A stretch of 64,000 nt of DNA from Actinomycetota bacterium (GTDB lineage Bacteria; Actinomycetota; CADDZG01; JAHWKV01; JAOPZY01), in contig DASTWV010000059.1 in the NCBI GenBank assembly GCA_035765775.1, forward strand, positions 248,001-312,000, given 5' to 3'. The notes beneath the pieces were generated by a model, which saw only the letters and a list, made by a program, of their open reading frames with translations, did no database searches and was not told the origin of the DNA. Positions within the stretch are counted from its first letter, which is position 1. The number at the start of each line of letters is the position of its first letter. Positions 3,084 to 48,832 of the stretch are shown one piece after another. The position numbers and the translations under genes are program-made.

Positions 3084-4106
3084 ATGCGGAATACCGTTGC
3101 GGAGCGGCGCAAGGCGTTGGGACTCACCCAGACCGAACTGGCGCTTGCCAGCCGGCTTTCTCGCCCGCTGATCAGTGCGGTAGAGACCGGCCGCCACGTC
3201 CCCAGCGTCAAGGCGGCCATCGCCATCTCCGAAGTCCTGGGCGGCACGGTCGAGGAAATCTTCGGCAGCAGCGAAGCCCAGGAGGTCCACGTCCCGGCCC
3301 TGGGCACCGCCCCGGCGGGCACGGTGCCCGTGATGGTGGCGCGGGTGGGCGACGTCTTGTCCTACCACCCACTGGACCACGGCGGCGCCGCGGCGACGTC
3401 CTGGGAGAAGGCGGACGGCCTCTACGTCAACGGCCGGGTCGAGCTGTTCCCCGACGCCGATGCCTCGGGCTTCGCGGTCGCCGGCTGCGAGCCGGCCCTC
3501 GGTCTGGCCGCCGCGCTCCTGCCGAAGTCGGGCCCGCAGCGACTGGTGGCGATGCCGGCCACCAGCGGCGAGGCCATCGATGCCTTGAATGCCGGCCGCA
3601 TCCACGGCGCCGTCACCCACGGGCGCCCCGGGCACCTGCGGCGCACCGCGCGCCCGGTGCGGCGCTTCGTGCTGACCGGCTGGCGGGTGGGCCTCGCCTC
3701 CCGGGTCGGGCTGCCCGCCGAACTCGAGCAGCTCGCCAGCGGCCAGCTCAAGGCCGCGACGCGCGATCCGGGTGCCGAATCGCAGAAGGCGCTGGAGCGG
3801 GCGCTGACCCCCTACGGAGGCGTCGCCAAGCTCAGCGGTCTCTCGGCCTCGGGCCACCTGGACGCCGCCCGGCGGGTCTCGGAGGGCCTGGTGGACGTCG
3901 GCATCACCATCGAGGCGGCCGCCCTGGCCTACGGTCTGGTCTTCGCACCGCTCGAGGAGCACCGGGTCGAGTTGCGGGTGTCCGATGAGTGGCAGGACCA
4001 TCCGGGTGCCCACGCCCTGCTTGAGCTCTTCTTCTCCGACAACTTCCGGCACCGCCTGAAGGCGTTGGGCGGCTACGACCTCAGCCAGGCGGGTCCGGTC
4101 GCGTAG
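3084..4106 (+). CDS. XRE-type regulator fused to a periplasmic-binding-protein-like domain
   Basis: 340 residues. Residues 1-60 are an XRE helix-turn-helix (RRKALGLTQTELALASRLSR, then 'PLISAVETGRHVPSVKAAIAI'). Residues about 65-335 look like the PBP-like domain (PF12727 type) found C-terminal to some MoeA and ModE-like proteins, with 'GLYVNGRVELFPDADASGFAV', a GCEPAL loop, 'AGRIHGAVTHGRPGH' and DVGITIEAAALAYGLVFAPL. Such proteins are thought to be one-component regulators that sense a small molecule, often in molybdenum-related contexts. Its own AT-rich promoter lies just upstream. Targets are unknown: the adjacent ABC-2 exporter and the molybdenum locus 3 kb away are both candidates. Confidence 0.75.
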   Translation: MRNTVAERRKALGLTQTELALASRLSRPLISAVETGRHVPSVKAAIAISEVLGGTVEEIFGSSEAQEVHVPALGTAPAGTVPVMVARVGDVLSYHPLDHGGAAATSWEKADGLYVNGRVELFPDADASGFAVAGCEPALGLAAALLPKSGPQRLVAMPATSGEAIDALNAGRIHGAVTHGRPGHLRRTARPVRRFVLTGWRVGLASRVGLPAELEQLASGQLKAATRDPGAESQKALERALTPYGGVAKLSGLSASGHLDAARRVSEGLVDVGITIEAAALAYGLVFAPLEEHRVELRVSDEWQDHPGAHALLELFFSDNFRHRLKALGGYDLSQAGPVA

Positions 4107-5917: not shown

Positions 5918-6763
5918 TCAATCCCAGTGGGTGGGCCGTTGGCACCCGGCAGGGATCCGGGTACGGGTATCGCCCCGGGCAGAATCGATCTGGGACTGGG
6001 TGACAAATAGGCAGGCCCCGAGCCCGGCCCCGCGCAGGTCGGCCCCGCGCAGATCCGCGCCCGTGAGATCGGCGGCGCCGAGGTCGAGTCCCTGCAGGTT
6101 GGCCCCCACCAGGAGCGCCCCCCGCAGGCTGGCGTTGCGGAGATCCTGCCGCCGGAGGTCGGCCCCCATCAGCAGTGCCCCCCGCCGGTCGGGCCCGAGC
6201 CCCCCGCGGGCGCCCCTGACGACCACGCTCACCGCGACCAGGGTTTCGTTGACCCCGCGCCGGTGCGCGTCGAGGTCGAGCGCCACCAGCCTGGCTGCGT
6301 CTCCGGAAGCCATCGTTTCTGTTGCTTCGCGGGCCTCAGCCAGGCGCGGCGCGAGGAGCTCGGCGCCCGGCAAGGCCTCGGCGCCGGTCAGCGCCTCGGC
6401 CTCCGTGAGGTACCAGAGCAGCTCGTGGAGCTGGCGCATGACCCCGAAGGCGGCGAACATCTGCCGGGCGGTCCCCGGGGCGCTGCGCCAGTCCCGGCCC
6501 CCGAAGGTCGCCTGCGCAATCCGTTGCCCCGCCCCGAAGCAGTCGTAGGCGGCGCACCCCGGGAACCCCTGGGCGCGCAACGATGGGTGGATGGCGCAGC
6601 GGTGATCCGGGGCCAGGTTCGGGCACGGGCGCCCGGCGGGCTTGTCGAGGGCAAAATCGGCCGAGACCGAAAAGGCCGGTGCGACGCAGCACAGCCCGAA
6701 GCAGCGGCTGCAGTCGGGGCGGAGCTCCGTCCTGCCCGAGTGGCCTTCCACGGACGGGGGCAT
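5918..6763 (-). CDS. Pentapeptide-repeat protein with N-terminal cysteine cluster
   Basis: 281 residues. Residues about 15-75 form a Cys-rich head ([17 protein letters not shown], then '[29 protein letters not shown]' pattern), which could bind a metal. The middle is helical. Residues about 205-260 are pentapeptide repeats of the A(D/N)LxG type: '[20 protein letters not shown]', '[20 protein letters not shown]'. Such repeats make a right-handed quadrilateral beta-helix that mimics DNA in some proteins, but here function is unknown. It is transcribed convergently to the exporter and divergently from mosB. Confidence 0.85.
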
Positions 6764-7084: not shown

Positions 7085-7888
7085 ATGGAAAGCGCCCTGC
7101 ACGACCTGCTGATGCACCGGTCCCTGACCGACAGCGCCCTCATGGAGGCCACCGCCCAGGCCGCCGACTTCCGCATCCTGCCCACCGTGAGCGTGGTCAA
7201 GATCGGCGGCCAGAGCCTGATCGACCGGGGCCGGGCTGCGGTCTACCCGATCGTCGAGGAGCTGGTGGAGGCCTCCAAGCGCCACAAGATCCTGATCGGC
7301 ACCGGGGCCGGCACCCGGGCCCGCCACCTGTACGCCACCGCCGCCGACCTCGGGCTGCCGACCGGTGTGCTGACCGACCTGGGCACCGCGGTCGCCGGCC
7401 AGAACGCCGAGATGCTGGGCTACCTGATGGCCCGGCACGGCATCAGCGTGGTGGGGGTCGGCGGGTTCAGTGGGCTCCCCCTGCACCTGGCCGAGCGCAA
7501 CGCCGCCATCTTCCCCGGCATGCCGCCCTACGACATGTGGCAGCACGTGCCGCGCGAGGGCATCATCCCGCCTTACCGCACCGACGCCGGTTGCTACCTG
7601 GTGGCCGAGGCCTACGGGTGCCGGTCGATGATCTTCGCCAAGGACGAGGACGGGCTGTTCACTGCCAACCCGAAGCGGGACGACTCGGCGACCCTCATCC
7701 CCGAGATCACCGTCAGCGAGTTGCTGGCCATGGACCTGCCCGATCTCGTCGTCGAGCGGCCGCTCCTATCCCTGCTGGCGAAGGCCCGCCATGTCCGCCA
7801 GATCCAGGTGGTCAACGGGCTGAAGCCGGGCTCGATCACCCGGGCACTCGACGGCGAGCACGTCGGCACCATCATCACGGCCGGCTAG
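7085..7888 (+). CDS. mosB: Molybdenum storage protein, beta-type subunit (MosB-like)
   Basis: 267 residues of the amino-acid-kinase (UMP kinase-like) fold that matches the Azotobacter molybdenum storage protein beta subunit along its whole length: start ESALHDLLMHRSLTDSALME, 'ADFRILPTVSVVKIGGQSLI' with 'DRGRAAVYPIVEELVEA', the nucleotide loop IGTGAGTRARHLYATAADLG, GMPPYDMWQHVPREGIIPPY, 'KDEDGLFTANPK' and the end VQVVNGLKPGSITRALDG with EHVGTIITAG. MoSto is an ATP-using cage that stores polyoxomolybdate or tungstate. The ATG at 7085 has a strong Shine-Dalgarno; the longer open frame from 6263 lacks coding character. It is followed by mosA 35 bases on. Confidence 0.93.
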   Translation: MESALHDLLMHRSLTDSALMEATAQAADFRILPTVSVVKIGGQSLIDRGRAAVYPIVEELVEASKRHKILIGTGAGTRARHLYATAADLGLPTGVLTDLGTAVAGQNAEMLGYLMARHGISVVGVGGFSGLPLHLAERNAAIFPGMPPYDMWQHVPREGIIPPYRTDAGCYLVAEAYGCRSMIFAKDEDGLFTANPKRDDSATLIPEITVSELLAMDLPDLVVERPLLSLLAKARHVRQIQVVNGLKPGSITRALDGEHVGTIITAG

Positions 7889-7923
7889 GCCGCACCGACA
7901 ACCCCATCAAGGAGGGATCCCCA

Positions 7924-8730
7924 ATGAGCGAAGCACTGCACGTCGAGTCCGCCCTCATGCGCCAGACCCTGCTGGACCGGGACCTCGTCGCCCCGGCGAC
8001 CGCCCGCCCTGTCATCCGGCTGCTGCCCAACCTGCACGTCGTGAAGATCGGCGGCCATTCGGTTTTCGACCGGGGCCGGGACGCCATCCTCCCGGTGGTC
8101 GACGAGCTGAAGGGCGCCATGAAGGAGCACAAGCTGCTGATCACCACCGGTACCGGCATCCGGGGTCGGCACGTCTTCGAGGTGGGCCTCGACCTCGGCC
8201 TGCCGACCGGCGTCCTGGCAGGCCTGGCGTCAGTGGACGCCGAGAAGAACGGCCACATGCTTGCGGCCCTGCTGGCCGAGGAGGGCGTCGTCTACCTGCC
8301 GCACCAGAGCGTCGGCCACCACCTGCCGGTCTTCCTGGCGGCGGTGCCGGCCGTGGTCGCCAACGGCTACCCGCCCTACGGGCTGTACGAGTTCCCCCCC
8401 GAGGTCGGGCGGATCCCGCCCCACCGGACCGATGCCGGGGCCTTCCTCCTCGCCGACGCCTACGGCGCGGCGAGGCTGGTGTACGCCGACGACGTGGACG
8501 GCATCTTCACGGCCGACCCGGCGACCGACCCGGGGGCGACCCTGATCCCGCAGGCCACCGCCGCAGAGCTGCAGGGCCTGGCGACGCTGCCGATTGACCG
8601 GATCGTGCTGGAGCTCATGGCCTCGGCCAAGCACATCAAGCAGATCCAGGTGGTGAACGGGCTGCGGCCGGGTGCCATCACCAGGGCGCTGGCGGGCGAG
8701 CACGTGGGAACGATCGTTACTGCCGGTTAG
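7924..8730 (+). CDS. mosA: Molybdenum storage protein, alpha-type subunit (MosA-like)
   Basis: 268 residues, paralogous to the upstream gene and closer to the MoSto alpha subunit: 'MRQTLLDRDLVAPATARPVI', RLLPNLHVVKIGGHSVFDRG, TGTGIRGRHVFEVGLDLGLP, 'AEKNGHMLAALLAEEGVVYL', GRIPPHRTDAGAFLLADAYG, DDVDGIFTADP and VNGLRPGAITRALAGEHVGT. Alpha/beta trimers of dimers form the storage cage. Two segments differ from the Azotobacter alpha protein as I recall it: PHQSVGHHLPVFL replaces a segment ending in IHL, and PPYGLYEF replaces PPYHHHEF, so the histidines reported to anchor the molybdate cluster appear to be missing. Shine-Dalgarno AAGGAGG at 7909-7915. Convergent with the Mop-domain regulator gene. 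Confidence 0.9.
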   Translation: MSEALHVESALMRQTLLDRDLVAPATARPVIRLLPNLHVVKIGGHSVFDRGRDAILPVVDELKGAMKEHKLLITTGTGIRGRHVFEVGLDLGLPTGVLAGLASVDAEKNGHMLAALLAEEGVVYLPHQSVGHHLPVFLAAVPAVVANGYPPYGLYEFPPEVGRIPPHRTDAGAFLLADAYGAARLVYADDVDGIFTADPATDPGATLIPQATAAELQGLATLPIDRIVLELMASAKHIKQIQVVNGLRPGAITRALAGEHVGTIVTAG

Positions 8731-8752
8731 GTCTGGTCAACAGGTCATGCGC

Positions 8753-9148
8753 CTAGTGGTCGGCGGGTAGCTCGATCATCACGCTCGTCGATTTCACCGC
8801 CGCCACCGCCAGCATCCCGGGCTCCAGGCCGAGGTCGTCCGCCGCCTCCCGCGTCATGAGGGAGACCATGCGGAAGGGCCCGGCCTGGAGCTCGACCTGG
8901 GCAGCGACCCCGTCGCGCACCACCCGGGTGACGATGCCCGTCAGGTGGTTGCGGGTGGACTGCACCCGGAGCCCCTCGATCTCGTGGGTGCCGGAGGAGA
9001 CGAAGCGGGCCAGCTCGGCCCCGTCGATCATGCGTTGCCCGCCGCCGGTGCGCTCGGCGGGCAGCTTGCCGGCATCGACCCAGCGCCGCACGGTGTCGGC
9101 GCTCACGCCGAGGACCTCAGCGACCTGACCGATCCGGTACTGGGGCAC
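8753..9148 (-). CDS. MerR/excisionase-type HTH protein with Mop (TOBE) molybdate-binding domain
   Basis: 131 residues. Residues 1-45 are a MerR-like helix-turn-helix (PQYRIGQVAEVLGVSADTVR, 'RWVDAGKLPAERTGGGQRMI'). Residues about 62-128 are a Mop/TOBE domain: TRNHLTGIVTRVVRDGVAAQ ... 'AVAAVKSTSVMIEL', the fold that binds molybdate or tungstate oxyanion in ModE and ModC. This is the third gene of the modA-modBC operon (28 bases after modBC), so it is probably a molybdate-responsive regulator or oxyanion carrier. The GTG start at 9148 puts the HTH at the N-terminus. Confidence 0.88.
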   Translation of the reverse strand: MPQYRIGQVAEVLGVSADTVRRWVDAGKLPAERTGGGQRMIDGAELARFVSSGTHEIEGLRVQSTRNHLTGIVTRVVRDGVAAQVELQAGPFRMVSLMTREAADDLGLEPGMLAVAAVKSTSVMIELPADH

Positions 9149-9176
9149 GGGGCGACTCTACTGAAACGTGCAGAAA

Positions 9177-11042
9177 TCAGCGAACTGGGGTGGCGCTTCG
9201 CTGCACGGGATCCGGGGCTGGTTCAGCCACAGCCCATACCGTGATGTGGCCCGGGGGCAGGGAAACGTCCACCAGATCCCCCGGACGTACCGACGGAGCG
9301 GTCACCGAGCGTGCCCGCAACTCGGGGCCCACCCCGTCGCCCAGGCGCAGCACCAGGTCGCTCACCGCCCCCATGTTCACGATGTCCAGGACCCGCGCCC
9401 CGTAGCGCGCCCCTCTCTGCAGCCCGTCGAGCGCCACGTACTCAGGGCGGATCGACCAGAGCACGGCACTGCCGGGGCTGAGGCCAGGAGTGGGCACCGA
9501 GATCGTCACACCGTCCACATCAATGCCGCCGTCCGCCCCCACGATGCCCTCCCGTAGGTTCTGGATCCCCAGCAGGCGGGCCACCTGGGGCGACGCCGGG
9601 CGGGCGTAGACCTCGGGCAGGGGCCCGGCCTGCAGGACCCGCCCGTGATCCATCACGATGACCTCGTCCGCCAGCAGGGCGGCCTCCTCGGGGTCGTGGG
9701 TGACCAGCACCGAGGACAGCCCGGTCTGCAGCTGGAGCCGGCGCAGCTCCCGGCGCAGCTCGTCGCGCACCGGGGCATCGAGGGCCGAGAAGGGCTCGTC
9801 GAGCAGCAGCAGCCGGGGCCCCCGGGCCATCGCCCGGGCGACGCTCACCCGCTGGCGCTGGCCGCCTGAGAGCTGCGAGGGAAGGCGGTCCTCCAGCCCG
9901 GTGAGGTGCAGGGTGTCCAGCCACCAGGCGGCGACCGCGGGGTCGGCGTCCGGGGCGAAACGCAGCTGCTGCCACACGGTCAGGTGCGGGAAGAGGCCGG
10001 TCGTCTGGGGCACGTAGCCGATCCGGCGGGCCTCGACCGGGACCCGGTTGACCACCTCCCCGTCGTAGAGCACCGGGCCGCACTTCGGCCCCATCAGCCC
10101 GGCCAGGCACTTGAGCGTCATGGACTTCCCCGACCCTGACGCGCCCAGGATCGCCACCCGGAACCGGGTGGACTGGTGGGCGAGGCGCAGGTGGAACGAG
10201 CCGACCGCGGTGTCCAGGTCGAAGCCGACCGGCGTGTGCGGCGCGGGCGCCGGGGGTGTCGCCAGCGGCAGGACCGCCTTGCGGCGGTAGCGCACGCCGG
10301 GCCGGATGTGCTCCAGACCGACGAGGAGGGCGGCGATGCACAGGGCCAGGGCGGTGGGAGCCACGGTTGCGTCCAGGCCGACGGCCTGGAACTGGACATA
10401 GTTGAAGACCGGCAGCGTGTAGGGGTGGTAGGCGAGGATGACCGTGGCGCCGTACTCGCCGAAGGCCCGGAGCCAGGCGAGCAGCAGCCCGGCCCGGATG
10501 CCGGGAGCGGCGGCGGGCAGGCTCACCTGGAAGAAGCGGGCGAGCGGGCGGCGGCCCAGCGTGGCGGCGACGTCCTCGAGGGCGGGATCGGCCGCCTCGA
10601 ACGCCGACCGGGCGGCGACGATCAGGAACGGCGCCGAGACAAAGCTCTGGGCGATGACCACCCCGGCCAGCGTCCCGGTCAGGTGCCCCCCGAACAGCCT
10701 CCCGACGGTGGTGTAGGGGCCGACGAGGAACAGCAGGAGGATGCCGCTCATCAGAGGCGGCAGGGCCAGGGGGAGGTAGACCGCAACCCCCACGGCCGTG
10801 GCGATCCAGCTCCGGCTGTGGGCCAGGGCGTAGGCGAGCGGGATGCCCGCCAGGGCGATCACCAGCACCGAGATGGTGGCGCTGGACGACGAGACCCAGA
10901 CCGCGTCCCACAGCCCGGGCGTGCTGGGCAGGGGTGCCTGGTGGGACAGCCGGACCAGGAAGGCGAGGACCGGCACGAGCAGGTACAACGCCAGCAGCCC
11001 CCCCAGCCACATGAGGGGGCTGCGGGCTGCCCGGAAGTTCAC
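9177..11042 (-). CDS. modBC: Molybdate ABC transporter, fused permease-ATPase (ModB-ModC)
   Basis: 621 residues, which fuse two normally separate subunits. Residues about 1-265 are the ModB-type permease: five or six membrane segments and the EAA loop 'LEDVAATLGRRPLARFFQVS' near residue 165. After a Pro/Ala linker ('ATPPAPAPHTPVGFD') comes the ModC-type ATPase, with Walker A 'ILGASGSGKSMTLKCLAGLM' near 300, 'IGYVPQTTGLFPHLTVWQQL', signature SQLSGGQRQRVSVARAMA, Walker B LLLLDEPFSALDAPVRDEL and switch 'SSVLVTHDPEEAALLADEVI'. The C-terminal about 130 residues form a TOBE-like oxyanion domain. A transporter would need two copies of the fusion. Starts with GTG, 31 bases after modA. Confidence 0.92.
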   Translation of the reverse strand: MNFRAARSPLMWLGGLLALYLLVPVLAFLVRLSHQAPLPSTPGLWDAVWVSSSSATISVLVIALAGIPLAYALAHSRSWIATAVGVAVYLPLALPPLMSGILLLFLVGPYTTVGRLFGGHLTGTLAGVVIAQSFVSAPFLIVAARSAFEAADPALEDVAATLGRRPLARFFQVSLPAAAPGIRAGLLLAWLRAFGEYGATVILAYHPYTLPVFNYVQFQAVGLDATVAPTALALCIAALLVGLEHIRPGVRYRRKAVLPLATPPAPAPHTPVGFDLDTAVGSFHLRLAHQSTRFRVAILGASGSGKSMTLKCLAGLMGPKCGPVLYDGEVVNRVPVEARRIGYVPQTTGLFPHLTVWQQLRFAPDADPAVAAWWLDTLHLTGLEDRLPSQLSGGQRQRVSVARAMARGPRLLLLDEPFSALDAPVRDELRRELRRLQLQTGLSSVLVTHDPEEAALLADEVIVMDHGRVLQAGPLPEVYARPASPQVARLLGIQNLREGIVGADGGIDVDGVTISVPTPGLSPGSAVLWSIRPEYVALDGLQRGARYGARVLDIVNMGAVSDLVLRLGDGVGPELRARSVTAPSVRPGDLVDVSLPPGHITVWAVAEPAPDPVQRSATPVR

Positions 11043-11073
11043 GGGTAGGTCAGGGCATGACGCCGCCCTGCGA

Positions 11074-12042
11074 TCACATACCCAACGCCGTGTTGAGACC
11101 CGCCGGTTCCCCGGTGCCGGTCACCGAGGGCGGGGTGACGAGCTGGAACTGGTCGGTGGTCATGAAGGCCTGGCCGGTCTTGCCGAGGAGGAAGTTGACG
11201 AAGGCCTCCGCCCCGGCCTCATCGGACGCCTTGTTCAGGATGGTGATGGTGTAGGTGGCATGCAGGGTGGAAGCCGGCCCGGTGAGCGGCACCGTCTTGA
11301 TGCCGGACGCCTGCGCCTCGATCGTGTAGAAGAACGCGGCATCGAGCTGCTTGGTCTGCAGCTGGGCGACCAGCGAGGTCTCGTCGAAGACGTTGCCGGT
11401 GTTGGTGGCAGCGACCAGGGCCTTGAGCGCCGTCGGGTTGGACACCGCCGGCGACAGGCCGCCGGCCGCCGCAGTGGTGGTGACCGCCTGGGCGGCCAGG
11501 ACCCCCTTCGGGTCGGTCTTCGGATCGGTCCGGCCCAGCTTGAAGCCGTTCAGGGTCACGGCGTTGTACCAAGGCCGGCTGGTGATCGCCGAGGCATAGG
11601 TGCTGCTGGGGTTGTAGCCGAGCACCAAGCCCGACGTGGCGATGGTGGCATACCACGAGACCCAGTTGCCGTTGGCCGACCCCATCAGGGAGGCGTTGGG
11701 GGCGGCGGCGGCGGAGAGGAAGACGTCGCCCTGGTACACGCCACTCTTGATGCCGCTGGCGAGGGCGGTGGAGCCGGCGCCTGTGCCGTTGAATTTATAG
11801 CCGGTGGCCGCCTGGAAGGCCGGTCCGATCTGGTTGGTCATGAGGCCGGCCAGCGAGCCGGCGTACAGCACGTTGACCGGTTGGCCGTTGCCGTTGACCG
11901 CGGTGGGGCTGGCAGTGGTCCCGCCGCTGGGCGTGGAACCACCGGTCGAGTGGTTGGTGCTCTTGCTGCACGCGGCCAGCAGCAGGACGAACACGGTGGA
12001 CAGCACCGCCGCACGGCGCGCCCGTGAGGTGGACTGCTCCAT
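11074..12042 (-). CDS. modA: Molybdate/tungstate-binding lipoprotein (ModA/WtpA-like)
   Basis: 322 residues from the ATG at 12042, which has an AAGGAG Shine-Dalgarno and begins a lipoprotein signal peptide (ARRAAVLSTVFVLLLAACSK, lipobox LLAAC). The mature protein starts with a Ser/Thr/Gly-rich tether and shows the oxyanion-binding-protein pattern: 'VNVLYAGSLAGLMTNQIGPA', GAGSTALASGIKSGVYQGDV, 'LVLGYNPSST' and a late 'ASDEAGAEAFVNFLLGKTGQ'. The VLYAGSL start resembles the WtpA branch, which prefers tungstate in some species, so molybdate against tungstate cannot be settled by reading. First gene of modA-modBC-regulator. Confidence 0.88.
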   Translation of the reverse strand: MEQSTSRARRAAVLSTVFVLLLAACSKSTNHSTGGSTPSGGTTASPTAVNGNGQPVNVLYAGSLAGLMTNQIGPAFQAATGYKFNGTGAGSTALASGIKSGVYQGDVFLSAAAAPNASLMGSANGNWVSWYATIATSGLVLGYNPSSTYASAITSRPWYNAVTLNGFKLGRTDPKTDPKGVLAAQAVTTTAAAGGLSPAVSNPTALKALVAATNTGNVFDETSLVAQLQTKQLDAAFFYTIEAQASGIKTVPLTGPASTLHATYTITILNKASDEAGAEAFVNFLLGKTGQAFMTTDQFQLVTPPSVTGTGEPAGLNTALGM

Positions 12043-16991: not shown

Positions 16992-18569
16992 CTACCGGAC
17001 GTCCGCCAGCAGCAGCGGCGGCACCTTCAAGGCGGTGATCCGGGGGGTGCGGCCGACGGTCTCGGACGCCATCTCCAGGGCGTCGGCCAGCGTCCCCGCC
17101 GAGCGGAAGCCGAGGCGGGCCACCGTCTTGCGGTCGCCGCCGACGAAGATCACATCGCCCAGGTGCTGCATGGCATGCGACGCCCAGTACCACATGTAGA
17201 ACGGGTGGACGCCGTGGTAGGCGTGCGATGTCCGGTACAGGTGGATGTACCAGGGATCGGTGGCGAAGGACTCCTCGTACTTGGACTCGATGACCGCCGG
17301 GTCGGTGGTCTCGGCCAGCACCTCCTCGAAGAAGTCCACGTAGCTGGGGTGGTGCACCTGGTGGAACTCCCGGCGCACCGGGTGGAACATGATCATCACG
17401 CCGCCCGGCCGCACCAGGGGCTGGTTGCGGTACAGGTTGAAGAAGTAGCCCAGCCCGAGGCACACCACCAGGATCGGGTTCATGATCGAGTTGACGTTGT
17501 AGGGCCCGACGAAGGGCAGCCCGGCGATGAGGATGTCGGACTGGCCGTTGACCTCGACCAGCTGCTGGCGGTGCAGGTTGGCGAGGGTGCGGGTGTGCAC
17601 CGCCTCGGTCTCGCCGGCGTTGATCCCGGTGATGCCGTAGGGCGAGTAGATCTTGTGGAAGATCGAGCGCTTGAGGTGGGCCGGCGCCCGGTCGGTGGAC
17701 GCCTTGGTGGCCAGGTAGGCGGCCTGGTCCTTCGCCGACCACTCCCACTCCCGGCGCATCAGGAAGTCGAACGGGGGGCCGAAGGTGTCGTTGTTGAGCG
17801 TGGTCTCGATGGTGAAGATCTTGACGTGCTCGGCGAGCAGGTGACCCATGCGGGTGGCCGAGGAGTGCAGGGCGCTGGCCGGCGGGTCCATGTAGGAGCG
17901 GCTGTGCAGCATCGTGTGGACGTTGTGGTGGTGCTTCAGGCTCTTGTAGCTCGCCAGGCCCACGGGCACGCTCTTGTGGCCGCCGTCCATGGCCACCAGG
18001 TTGATGTTCACGTAGACGAGAAGGTCGCTGGTGGCCGCCCGCTTGGAGATCTCGACGTCCTCACCCATCTCGGTCTTGCCCACGTGGATCAGGGCGTCGG
18101 GGTCCTCGGCGTCGAAGTTGTACAGGGCGTGGGGCCAGAACGAGCGGTAGACCCGCTCCCCCACCGCCCGCTTGACCTCGGCGGCGGTCATCCGGCGGTG
18201 CAGGGCGGTGGCGATGATGATCTCTACGTCGTCCACGCCCGCCCGGGCGGCCCGCTCCAAGACGTGCTCCAGGATGCGGCCCCGGATGTCGGGCGTCTTC
18301 ATCTGCGGCAGGGGGATTGAGATGTCGTCGATTGCGATGGTCAGCTTCATCCCCCGCGTGAGGAGGGCGGTGAGGGGCTCGCTGCCCTGCGGGTGGTCGA
18401 GGGCGTGGTCGATGGCGGCATCGACGTCCTTGATGCCGGGCAGCGACTCCGGCGGGTAGACGACCCGGCTCCCCAGCGGGAGGCGCTCGAGGCGGAACCC
18501 CTCGCCGTTGTGGAACAGCAACGGAGGGGTGCGCTCGTCCACCTCCAGCACGAAGCCCGGTCTGCTCAC
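16992..18569 (-). CDS. LarA-like (DUF2088/lactate racemase superfamily) protein
   Basis: 525 residues. The N-terminal half resembles the nickel-dependent lactate racemase LarA: 'MKLTIAIDDISIPLPQMKTP', IIIATALHRRMTAAEVKRAV (LarA His in LHR), and 'NLVAMDGGHKSVPVGLASYK' with a Lys where LarA attaches its nickel-pincer cofactor, followed by a KHHHN cluster. The C-terminal half ('YFFNLYRNQPLVRPGGVMIM', 'HAYHGVHPFYMWYWASHAMQ') is less typical, and some LarA residues (the Arg after the Asp, one His) seem absent, so it is a divergent member. It sits with lipid enzymes; no larB, larC or larE is in the window. GTG start with a GGAG site. Confidence 0.72.
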   Translation of the reverse strand: MSRPGFVLEVDERTPPLLFHNGEGFRLERLPLGSRVVYPPESLPGIKDVDAAIDHALDHPQGSEPLTALLTRGMKLTIAIDDISIPLPQMKTPDIRGRILEHVLERAARAGVDDVEIIIATALHRRMTAAEVKRAVGERVYRSFWPHALYNFDAEDPDALIHVGKTEMGEDVEISKRAATSDLLVYVNINLVAMDGGHKSVPVGLASYKSLKHHHNVHTMLHSRSYMDPPASALHSSATRMGHLLAEHVKIFTIETTLNNDTFGPPFDFLMRREWEWSAKDQAAYLATKASTDRAPAHLKRSIFHKIYSPYGITGINAGETEAVHTRTLANLHRQQLVEVNGQSDILIAGLPFVGPYNVNSIMNPILVVCLGLGYFFNLYRNQPLVRPGGVMIMFHPVRREFHQVHHPSYVDFFEEVLAETTDPAVIESKYEESFATDPWYIHLYRTSHAYHGVHPFYMWYWASHAMQHLGDVIFVGGDRKTVARLGFRSAGTLADALEMASETVGRTPRITALKVPPLLLADVR

Positions 18570-47914: not shown

Positions 47915-48832
47915 TCAGGCGGCCATCGCCGCCCGTAGCGAACTGAGGAAGGGGCGTGGGTCCGCCAGATCGTCGGGCGTAATGTGCAGCAGGGTCCAGT
48001 GCCGCGCGGTGATGGCGTTGCGGCGCCGCAGATCGTGCCACCACCCTTGGCGACCACCGTGGAACTCGAACCCGTCCCCTTCCACGCCGAGGCGGAGCGG
48101 CGGGTACGCGAAGTCCACCACGGCGATCAGCCGGCCGCGCACGTCCCGGATCTCGTACTCCTCGACGAAATCGCCCTCCGGAGCCAGGAGCGCCCGGACC
48201 GACTTCTGGAAAGCGCTGGCCGAGGGGCCGTCCTTGGGGCCGCGGTCGTCCAGGAGGCGGGCAAGCCGACCCACACCGCGGCGGCCAGGACCCGCGATCT
48301 TGGCCATCGCCCAGCGCAACTGCATCTCGCTGGCGAAGTTGCGGCGCATCACCTCGTCGACGGTGTTCTCGAACACGACCGGGTCCGGCTCAACCTCGGC
48401 GAGGTTGATGAGGGTCATGGCAGGGTTCATCACCGGGATGCCCTCCGCCTGCATGACGAACTGAGGGTTTGGGACGCGGCGGTAGACCTGCACCTGGGGG
48501 ACGCTCAGGCCACGCTTCGGGGCGATGATCTGGAGGGGTTCCAGAACTCCCTGGGCATCCCGGGCGTTGAGGTCGTAACCCTTGAGCCCGTGCAGGGCCG
48601 CCGCTGAGCGGTGCGAGGCCGCGCCGCTCCCCGACCACAGGCACGCGGCCATCAGATCCTGGTGCCGGGAGGGGGGCGCGCCGGTCAGCCGGTACACGTC
48701 GGGCAGGACCCGCTCGATTTCTTCCCGCTCGATGGCCCGGACCAGAGCGCCGGGGTACAGGCCGCAAGCCAGGCACTGTTCCCTGGTGACGAGGCCGTGC
48801 TGCTCGGCGGCGAACTCCCTGAGAAGATCCAT
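47915..48832 (-). CDS. AbiEi-like HTH domain with DUF559/Vsr-type nuclease-fold domain
   Basis: 305 residues. The N-terminus (AEQHGLVTREQCLACGLYPG, 'VLPDVYRLTGAPPSRHQDLM') is the winged-helix of AbiEi-like antitoxins, which regulate type IV toxin-antitoxin operons. The C-terminus has the DUF559 pattern, 'LIAVVDFAYPPLRLGVEGDG' followed by FEFHG and 'RRNAITARHWTLLHITPDDL', the D...E.D core of Vsr-like nuclease folds. Proteins with this pair of domains are common orphan genes in actinobacteria. No partner toxin gene is adjacent. Function unknown. Confidence 0.83.
   Translation of the reverse strand: MDLLREFAAEQHGLVTREQCLACGLYPGALVRAIEREEIERVLPDVYRLTGAPPSRHQDLMAACLWSGSGAASHRSAAALHGLKGYDLNARDAQGVLEPLQIIAPKRGLSVPQVQVYRRVPNPQFVMQAEGIPVMNPAMTLINLAEVEPDPVVFENTVDEVMRRNFASEMQLRWAMAKIAGPGRRGVGRLARLLDDRGPKDGPSASAFQKSVRALLAPEGDFVEEYEIRDVRGRLIAVVDFAYPPLRLGVEGDGFEFHGGRQGWWHDLRRRNAITARHWTLLHITPDDLADPRPFLSSLRAAMAA

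What the first reader, a model, noticed from the sequence alone, without database searches (positions are those of the whole stretch)
7085..12042. Complete molybdenum uptake and storage locus in an actinobacterium
Two molybdenum-storage (MoSto) subunits are convergent with a modA - fused modBC - Mop-regulator operon. MoSto has been studied mainly in Azotobacter and related proteobacteria as a nitrogenase supply store. Here no nitrogenase gene is in view, so the stored metal may serve other molybdo- or tungsto-enzymes.
Basis: partly seen in the sequence, partly recalled or inferred. Interest (0 to 1): 0.75.

Follow-up and report, generated by a model that had tools for sequence, protein, structure and literature searches.

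The report
Actinobacterial molybdenum-storage cage lacking known ligands
This actinobacterium without nitrogenase carries genes for the hollow protein cage that Azotobacter uses to hoard molybdenum, next to a molybdate/tungstate uptake operon, but its cage lacks the amino acids known to hold the metal clusters, so it probably stores the metal differently and for other enzymes such as CO dehydrogenase.

Summary
7085-7891 (+) is a MosB (beta) and 7924-8730 (+) a MosA (alpha) homologue of the Azotobacter molybdenum-storage protein (66% and 57% identity; PDB E 3e-113 and 4e-86), not a UMP kinase. They converge on an operon of a WtpA/ModA-type binding lipoprotein, a fused permease-ATPase, and an HTH-Mop regulator. 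The 96%-complete genome has no nitrogenase and no tungsten aldehyde oxidoreductase, but two form-I Mo-Cu CO dehydrogenases, further Mo hydroxylases and a formate dehydrogenase with an in-frame TGA. New here: the alpha residues that hold polyoxomolybdate in Azotobacter (E129, H156) and their neighbours (H157, H158) are P, G, L, Y; H140 is F. A survey shows this is a lineage feature: 61 alpha chains of a proteobacterial clade keep the E/HHH set with rare exceptions, and all 17 alpha chains of a mostly actinobacterial assemblage lack E129, H156 and H157. nifD occurs in 20 of 24 genomes of the first and 0 of 20 of the second. The tree nests the E/HHH clade inside the other, so the covalent ligands look like a later invention. 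New variant of a known kind; metal identity and loading are untested.

The parts
7085..7891 (+). mosB, beta subunit of a MoSto-type storage cage (267 aa); pump residues K42 and M149 (Azotobacter numbering) kept
   Evidence: 66% identity to A. vinelandii MosB; PDB E 2.9e-113; residue counts
7924..8730 (+). mosA, alpha subunit (268 aa), with E129/H140/H156/H157/H158 replaced by P/F/G/L/Y and Q136 by H
   Evidence: 57% identity to A. vinelandii MosA; PDB E 4.3e-86; fold search ranks 1-15 all MoSto; survey
8753..9148 (-). HTH (MerR/BldC-like) plus single Mop/TOBE domain, likely molybdate/tungstate-responsive regulator
   Evidence: PF12728, PF03459, TIGR00638 (45.8 bits, cut-off 55); 57% identical protein beside mosBA in L020, L023, L024
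9177..11042 (-). fused permease-ATPase-TOBE_2 of a molybdate/tungstate-type ABC transporter (621 aa)
   Evidence: PF00528, PF00005, PF08402; best permease models Mo_ABC_porter and WtpB; about 53% identical fusion beside mosBA in L020 and L023
11074..12042 (-). oxyanion-binding lipoprotein, WtpA/ModA-like (322 aa; lipobox LLAAC supports the start at 12042)
   Evidence: PF13531; WtpA 65.8 bits, ModA 32.8 bits; PDB relatives MA_0280 and AF_0094

Best explanation
A molybdate/tungstate uptake-and-storage locus built on a non-diazotroph type of MoSto. The lipoprotein and the fused ABC transporter import the oxyanion; the HTH-Mop protein senses it and presumably controls the genes. MosB and MosA form an (alpha-beta)3 cage in which the beta subunit spends ATP to drive molybdate through the wall (K42 and the M149 gate are kept). 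Inside, clusters cannot be held by the covalent E129/H156 ligation known from Azotobacter, nor on the three-fold axis by H140; other contacts (nonpolar pockets, H130, the new H135/H136) would hold them, giving a different and perhaps more labile store. Likely clients are Mo-Cu CO dehydrogenases, other Mo hydroxylases and formate dehydrogenase. Shown: identities, gene layout, absent ligands, absent nitrogenase, present Mo enzymes, clade pattern. Inferred: hexamer, pumping, metal, regulation, clients, lability.
For: Membership. Ligand loss as a lineage feature: E129, H156 and H157 absent in 17 of 17 alpha chains of the mostly actinobacterial set and present in 59-60 of 61 of the proteobacterial clade; role of His156 and Glu129 from PMC4504029. 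Pump residues kept in 82 of 82 beta chains. Uptake genes beside mosBA recur in L020, L023, L024 and L026. No nifD in 20 of 20 such genomes. Clients. E/HHH clade nested, support 100/100.
Against: No experiment on any member of this set. Most members keep H140 and Q136, so the window alpha is unusual even there and could be degenerating. Two Actinomycetospora alpha chains are fast-evolving. Most other actinobacterial loci in the survey have no mod genes in the stretch held. The link to CO dehydrogenase is confounded by kinship.
Confidence: 0.6

Rival explanations
1. Functionally ordinary MoSto: the altered residues change which clusters are seen in crystals but not how much polyoxomolybdate is stored or how it is released.
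For: Whole-length homology and fold; some Azotobacter clusters are held by van der Waals contacts only (PMC4504029); a solved H156A variant exists in the PDB (6h6w), so the cage assembles without that ligand.
Against: E129, H156 and H157 are near-invariant in one clade and absent in the other, with a two-residue length change beside them, which suggests a functional shift of the pocket.
Confidence: 0.22
2. The cargo is mainly tungsten: a tungstate store for formate dehydrogenase, or a trap that keeps tungstate away from the Mo enzymes.
For: Binding protein closer to WtpA than ModA; formate dehydrogenase with in-frame TGA; a distant single-gene relative sits beside a TupA-like protein; Azotobacter MoSto takes tungstate and protects against it (PMC6448029).
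Against: WtpA-type binders are known to bind both oxyanions (own knowledge); no W aldehyde oxidoreductase; most Mo enzymes present are Mo-Cu or Mo hydroxylases; in L026 the neighbouring binder is a ModA over cut-off.
Confidence: 0.13
3. Not a storage protein: a nucleotide or other small-molecule kinase of the amino-acid-kinase family.
For: NCBIfam's nearest models are UMP kinases, and public plasmid records call such genes 'uridine kinase'.
Against: UMP kinase scores are far below cut-offs; matches to MoSto are better by more than 70 orders of magnitude in sequence E-value and about 18 in fold E-value; paired alpha/beta subunits, the M149 gate and linkage to oxyanion uptake genes recur.
Confidence: 0.03

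Closest known systems
Molybdenum storage protein MoSto (MosA/MosB) of Azotobacter vinelandii (PDB 2ogx, 4f6t, 6rkd)
   Same: Two tandem homologous subunits, whole-length homology, same fold, pump residues K42 and M149 of beta kept
   Different: Host has no nitrogenase; alpha lacks E129, H140, H156, H157, H158; two extra residues after the loop; linked to its own uptake operon and regulator
UMP kinase PyrH and other amino-acid kinases
   Same: Same superfamily fold (PF00696)
   Different: About 20-24% identity; scores far below family cut-offs
WtpABC / ModABC oxyanion transporters
   Same: Binding protein, permease, ATPase with TOBE_2 domain
   Different: Permease and ATPase fused; below curated cut-offs of both WtpA and ModA
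ModE and Mop/TOBE molybdate sensors
   Same: TOBE (Mop) domain joined to a helix-turn-helix
   Different: MerR/BldC-like HTH and only one TOBE domain, unlike ModE with its own HTH and two TOBE domains
Tub, tungstate store of Eubacterium limosum (PMC11980592)
   Same: Hexameric oxyanion store outside diazotrophs
   Different: Single TOBE domain, unrelated fold, eight oxyanions per hexamer

Membership tests
MoSto (MosAB) | Whole-length homology to MosA and MosB well above other amino-acid kinases | tested here: met
MoSto (MosAB) | Two paralogous subunits encoded in tandem, each in its own clade | tested here: met
   (alpha and beta separated with 100/100)
MoSto (MosAB) | ATP-dependent pump residues of beta (K42, M149) | tested here: met
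   conserved in window and in 82 of 82 beta chains; their role is known to me from the structural papers, and a K-beta-42-S variant is solved (6ris)
MoSto (MosAB) | Covalent polyoxomolybdate ligands of alpha, Glu129 and His156 | tested here: not met
   P and G in the window. Described in one organism (PMC4504029), so I treat it as defining the Azotobacter type, not the family
MoSto (MosAB) | (alpha-beta)3 hexamer loading about 100 Mo or W with ATP | not testable with these tools
   needs expression and ICP-MS
UMP kinase (PyrH) | Score over the PyrH equivalog cut-off | tested here: not met
   51.0 and 48.1 bits against 158.05 (TIGR02076)
WtpABC tungstate transporter | Binding protein over the WtpA equivalog cut-off | tested here: not met
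   65.8 against 355 and 54.7 against 242.75 bits; nearest relatives nonetheless
ModABC molybdate transporter | Binding protein over the ModA cut-off | tested here: not met
   32.8 against 62.5 bits

The most novel reading that the evidence does not exclude
Outside the nif-linked proteobacteria there is an older and broader type of MoSto cage that holds Mo or W without the covalent cluster ligands and feeds CO dehydrogenase, other Mo enzymes or formate dehydrogenase; the ligands seen in Azotobacter arose once, in the proteobacterial clade. A single-gene relative beside a TupA-like protein hints at a still simpler, homomeric tungsten store.
Probability: 0.45. Interest if true: 0.72.

Novelty: new variant of a known kind. 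Interest (0 to 1): 0.56.

Why it matters
To my knowledge MoSto is the only known protein that uses ATP to pump an oxyanion into a cage and builds polyoxometalates there, and the open literature treats it as nitrogen-fixation machinery. A cage that keeps the pump but lacks the cluster ligands is a natural test of what those ligands do. The locus also suggests that metal hoarding serves aerobic CO oxidation or similar metabolism, and it corrects a common misannotation of these genes as uridine or UMP kinase.

Tried and rejected
UMP kinase or other amino-acid kinase: rejected by scores. Moco riboswitch or other Rfam RNA: none in window 1-30000. Shared operator between the mosB and binding-protein upstream regions: no shared 9-mer; an 11-mer shared with Pseudonocardiales upstream regions is expected by chance at this G+C, so not claimed. 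Sigma-70 promoters: none by consensus; no terminator-like site between the convergent ends. Enzyme genes shared by the neighbourhoods of actinobacterial mosBA: neighbours sampled from several loci were unrelated, so the clients cannot be read from gene order. CO dehydrogenase as client by co-occurrence: 10 of 16 actinobacterial mosBA genomes against 55 of 397 of the phylum sample have form-I CoxL over the cut-off, but the 16 are related, and close relatives without mosBA have it too, so it is only suggestive. The NifH search gave only short P-loop ATPase stretches. More members of the single-gene type near G306: none new among 148 relatives. Papers on MoSto in actinobacteria or nitrite oxidisers: none in the held library.

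Full report
The observation. Two tandem plus-strand genes at 7085-7891 and 7924-8730, each with an AAGGAGG ribosome site, encode 267 and 268 aa. Their best solved relatives are the beta and alpha subunits of the Azotobacter vinelandii molybdenum storage protein (E 2.9e-113 and 4.3e-86), with UMP kinases far behind. Identity to the Azotobacter chains is 66% (beta) and 57% (alpha) over the whole length. An AlphaFold model of the alpha chain (pLDDT 82.9) finds MoSto chains as its first 15 matches in the PDB, and UMP kinases only then. Convergent with them, on the minus strand, lie an HTH plus Mop/TOBE protein (8753-9148), a fused permease-ATPase (9177-11042) and a solute-binding lipoprotein (11074-12042). 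The binder is not a clear ModA: it scores better against WtpA, is below both curated cut-offs, and its PDB relatives are archaeal molybdate/tungstate binders.

The host. The window lies in a 547-kb contig of a 3.6-Mb, 95.8% complete genome and the G+C is even across the locus, so a stray contig is unlikely. The phylum is Actinomycetota: genome G101, given as 'same phylum', shares its contigs with the Solirubrobacteraceae MAG of locus L026. mosBA-like genes are rare: 4 of 397 genomes sampled from the phylum have one, the window's own included, and none of the 40 closest relatives does. This points to horizontal gain (inference).

What it could feed. The genome has no Oxidored_nitro protein and no nifD, and no tungsten aldehyde oxidoreductase. 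It has two aerobic CO dehydrogenase large subunits over the curated cut-off, both with the form-I AYRCSFR motif, a CoxL-like Mo hydroxylase, a xanthine-dehydrogenase-like protein and a DMSO-reductase-family protein. It also has a formate dehydrogenase (1560 bits, cut-off 1400) whose frame contains one TGA, probably selenocysteine, about 50 kb from the window. Mo is more likely than W, though the formate dehydrogenase could use either.

The main result. In the Azotobacter alpha subunit an octamolybdate is bound covalently by His156 and Glu129, and a tungsten cluster sits on the three-fold axis on three symmetry-related histidines (PMC4504029; that this histidine is His140 is my own recollection). 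In the window these positions are Gly, Pro and Phe; His157 and His158 are Leu and Tyr; and Gln136, invariant in all other surveyed alpha chains, is His. Of 209 MosB relatives found in 84,980 species genomes, the 80 best were read. mosA follows mosB wherever the contig allows. The alpha chains fall into two sets. In 61 chains of Pseudomonadota, A. vinelandii included, E129 is kept in 60, H156 in 60, H157 in 59, H158 in 61 and H140 in 61. In 17 chains from Actinomycetota, a Chloroflexi MAG, a Nitrococcus MAG and a Vicinamibacterales MAG, position 129 is P or S, 156 is G, E or D, and 157 is L, I or V; H158 remains in 4 and H140 in 15. A histidine at 135, present in 1 of 61 of the first set, is present in 13 of these 17. 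The beta chains keep lysine 42 and Met149 in 82 of 82. So the pump looks intact in both sets while the cluster pocket differs.

Order of events. In a careful tree of 72 chains, alpha and beta lie on two sides of one branch. Each Pseudomonadota E/HHH clade has 100/100 support, and the remaining chains do not form one clade in either subunit (0% and 3% of bootstrap trees). Rooted on the alpha-beta split, the E/HHH clade is nested; the PPY-[GED]-[LIV]-[YFHW] loop of the other alpha chains also resembles the beta chains and the distant relatives. The covalent ligand set is thus most simply a later gain of the proteobacterial clade.

Link to nitrogen fixation. nifD is present in 20 of 24 tested genomes with the E/HHH type, in 0 of 20 with the other type, and in neither of two genomes with more distant relatives (Fisher p 6e-9). 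This is one evolutionary contrast, not 44 independent ones. Four E/HHH genomes without nifD (Nitrobacter, Nitrotoga and two MAGs) keep the ligands, so the residues follow descent rather than nif content.

Mechanism and rivals. By homology the beta subunit would hydrolyse ATP to push molybdate into an (alpha-beta)3 cage. Without E129, H156 and H140, the window cage would have to hold clusters by nonpolar pockets, already described for some Azotobacter clusters (PMC4504029), or by its own histidines H130, H135 and H136. A weaker, faster-releasing store is my preferred reading. Unchanged function and tungsten as the cargo are live rivals; MoSto of A. vinelandii accepts tungstate and protects against it (PMC6448029). 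Uptake genes beside mosBA recur in three Pseudonocardiales MAGs (same HTH-Mop, fused permease-ATPase and WtpA-like binder, but divergent rather than convergent with mosBA) and, with a true ModA, in the Solirubrobacteraceae MAG, which supports a common function in oxyanion storage.

Novelty. In the open-access library I found no paper on MoSto in actinobacteria or on a ligand-free type. A 2026 survey lists mosAB among nitrogen-fixation metal genes (PMC12903952). Most structural MoSto papers are in subscription journals not held here, so earlier mention of actinobacterial homologues cannot be excluded. I rate it a new variant of a known kind.

Limits. 129 of the 209 loci were not read. Ligand roles rest on one organism. 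Neighbour sampling was partial. No experiment bears on the actinobacterial protein.

Noticed in passing
L097:854-1657 and 1888-2778 (genome G306, Actinomycetota): A single, unpaired MoSto-like gene (43% to window MosB, Met149 kept) lies directly upstream of a TupA-like tungstate-binding protein (239 bits): a possible homomeric tungsten store.
   Followed up: partly
L096:1501-3083 (genome G214, Actinomycetota): A third, strongly diverged MoSto-like pair, both members with a Met at the gate position, beside an ABC ATPase gene.
   Followed up: partly
window 16992-18569 (-); L019 and L022:11947-13518: A nickel-pincer hydroxyacid isomerase (LarAH14/15/16) lies 8-9 kb from mosBA; two actinobacterial MAGs also have mosBA within 3 kb of a 67% identical LarA. 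Chance or shared transfer unknown.
   Followed up: partly
G000:C59 about 196.3-200.6 kb (L012): Formate dehydrogenase frame with one in-frame TGA, probably selenocysteine; selenocysteine machinery was not searched for.
   Followed up: partly
window 3084-4106 (+): HTH_3 plus PBP_like (PF12727) regulator, a domain also found at the end of MoeA-like molybdopterin proteins, upstream of an ABC exporter.
   Followed up: no
window 5918-6763 (-): Pentapeptide-repeat protein with a cysteine-rich N-terminal stretch (CSRCFGLCC).
   Followed up: no
window 48048-48128 (-): ARAGORN calls a tRNA with a four-base anticodon (ccgc); probably spurious.
   Followed up: no
Azospirillum plasmids, e.g. NZ_CP007798.1:78370-79155: MosB homologues are annotated as uridine kinase or UMP kinase in public records.
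   Followed up: no
alpha chains of most Actinomycetota (L014-L030): The usual kinase lysine (K45 of KIGG) of alpha is V, A or S in 14 of 17 chains of this set but kept in the window; the alpha nucleotide site may be non-catalytic.
   Followed up: partly
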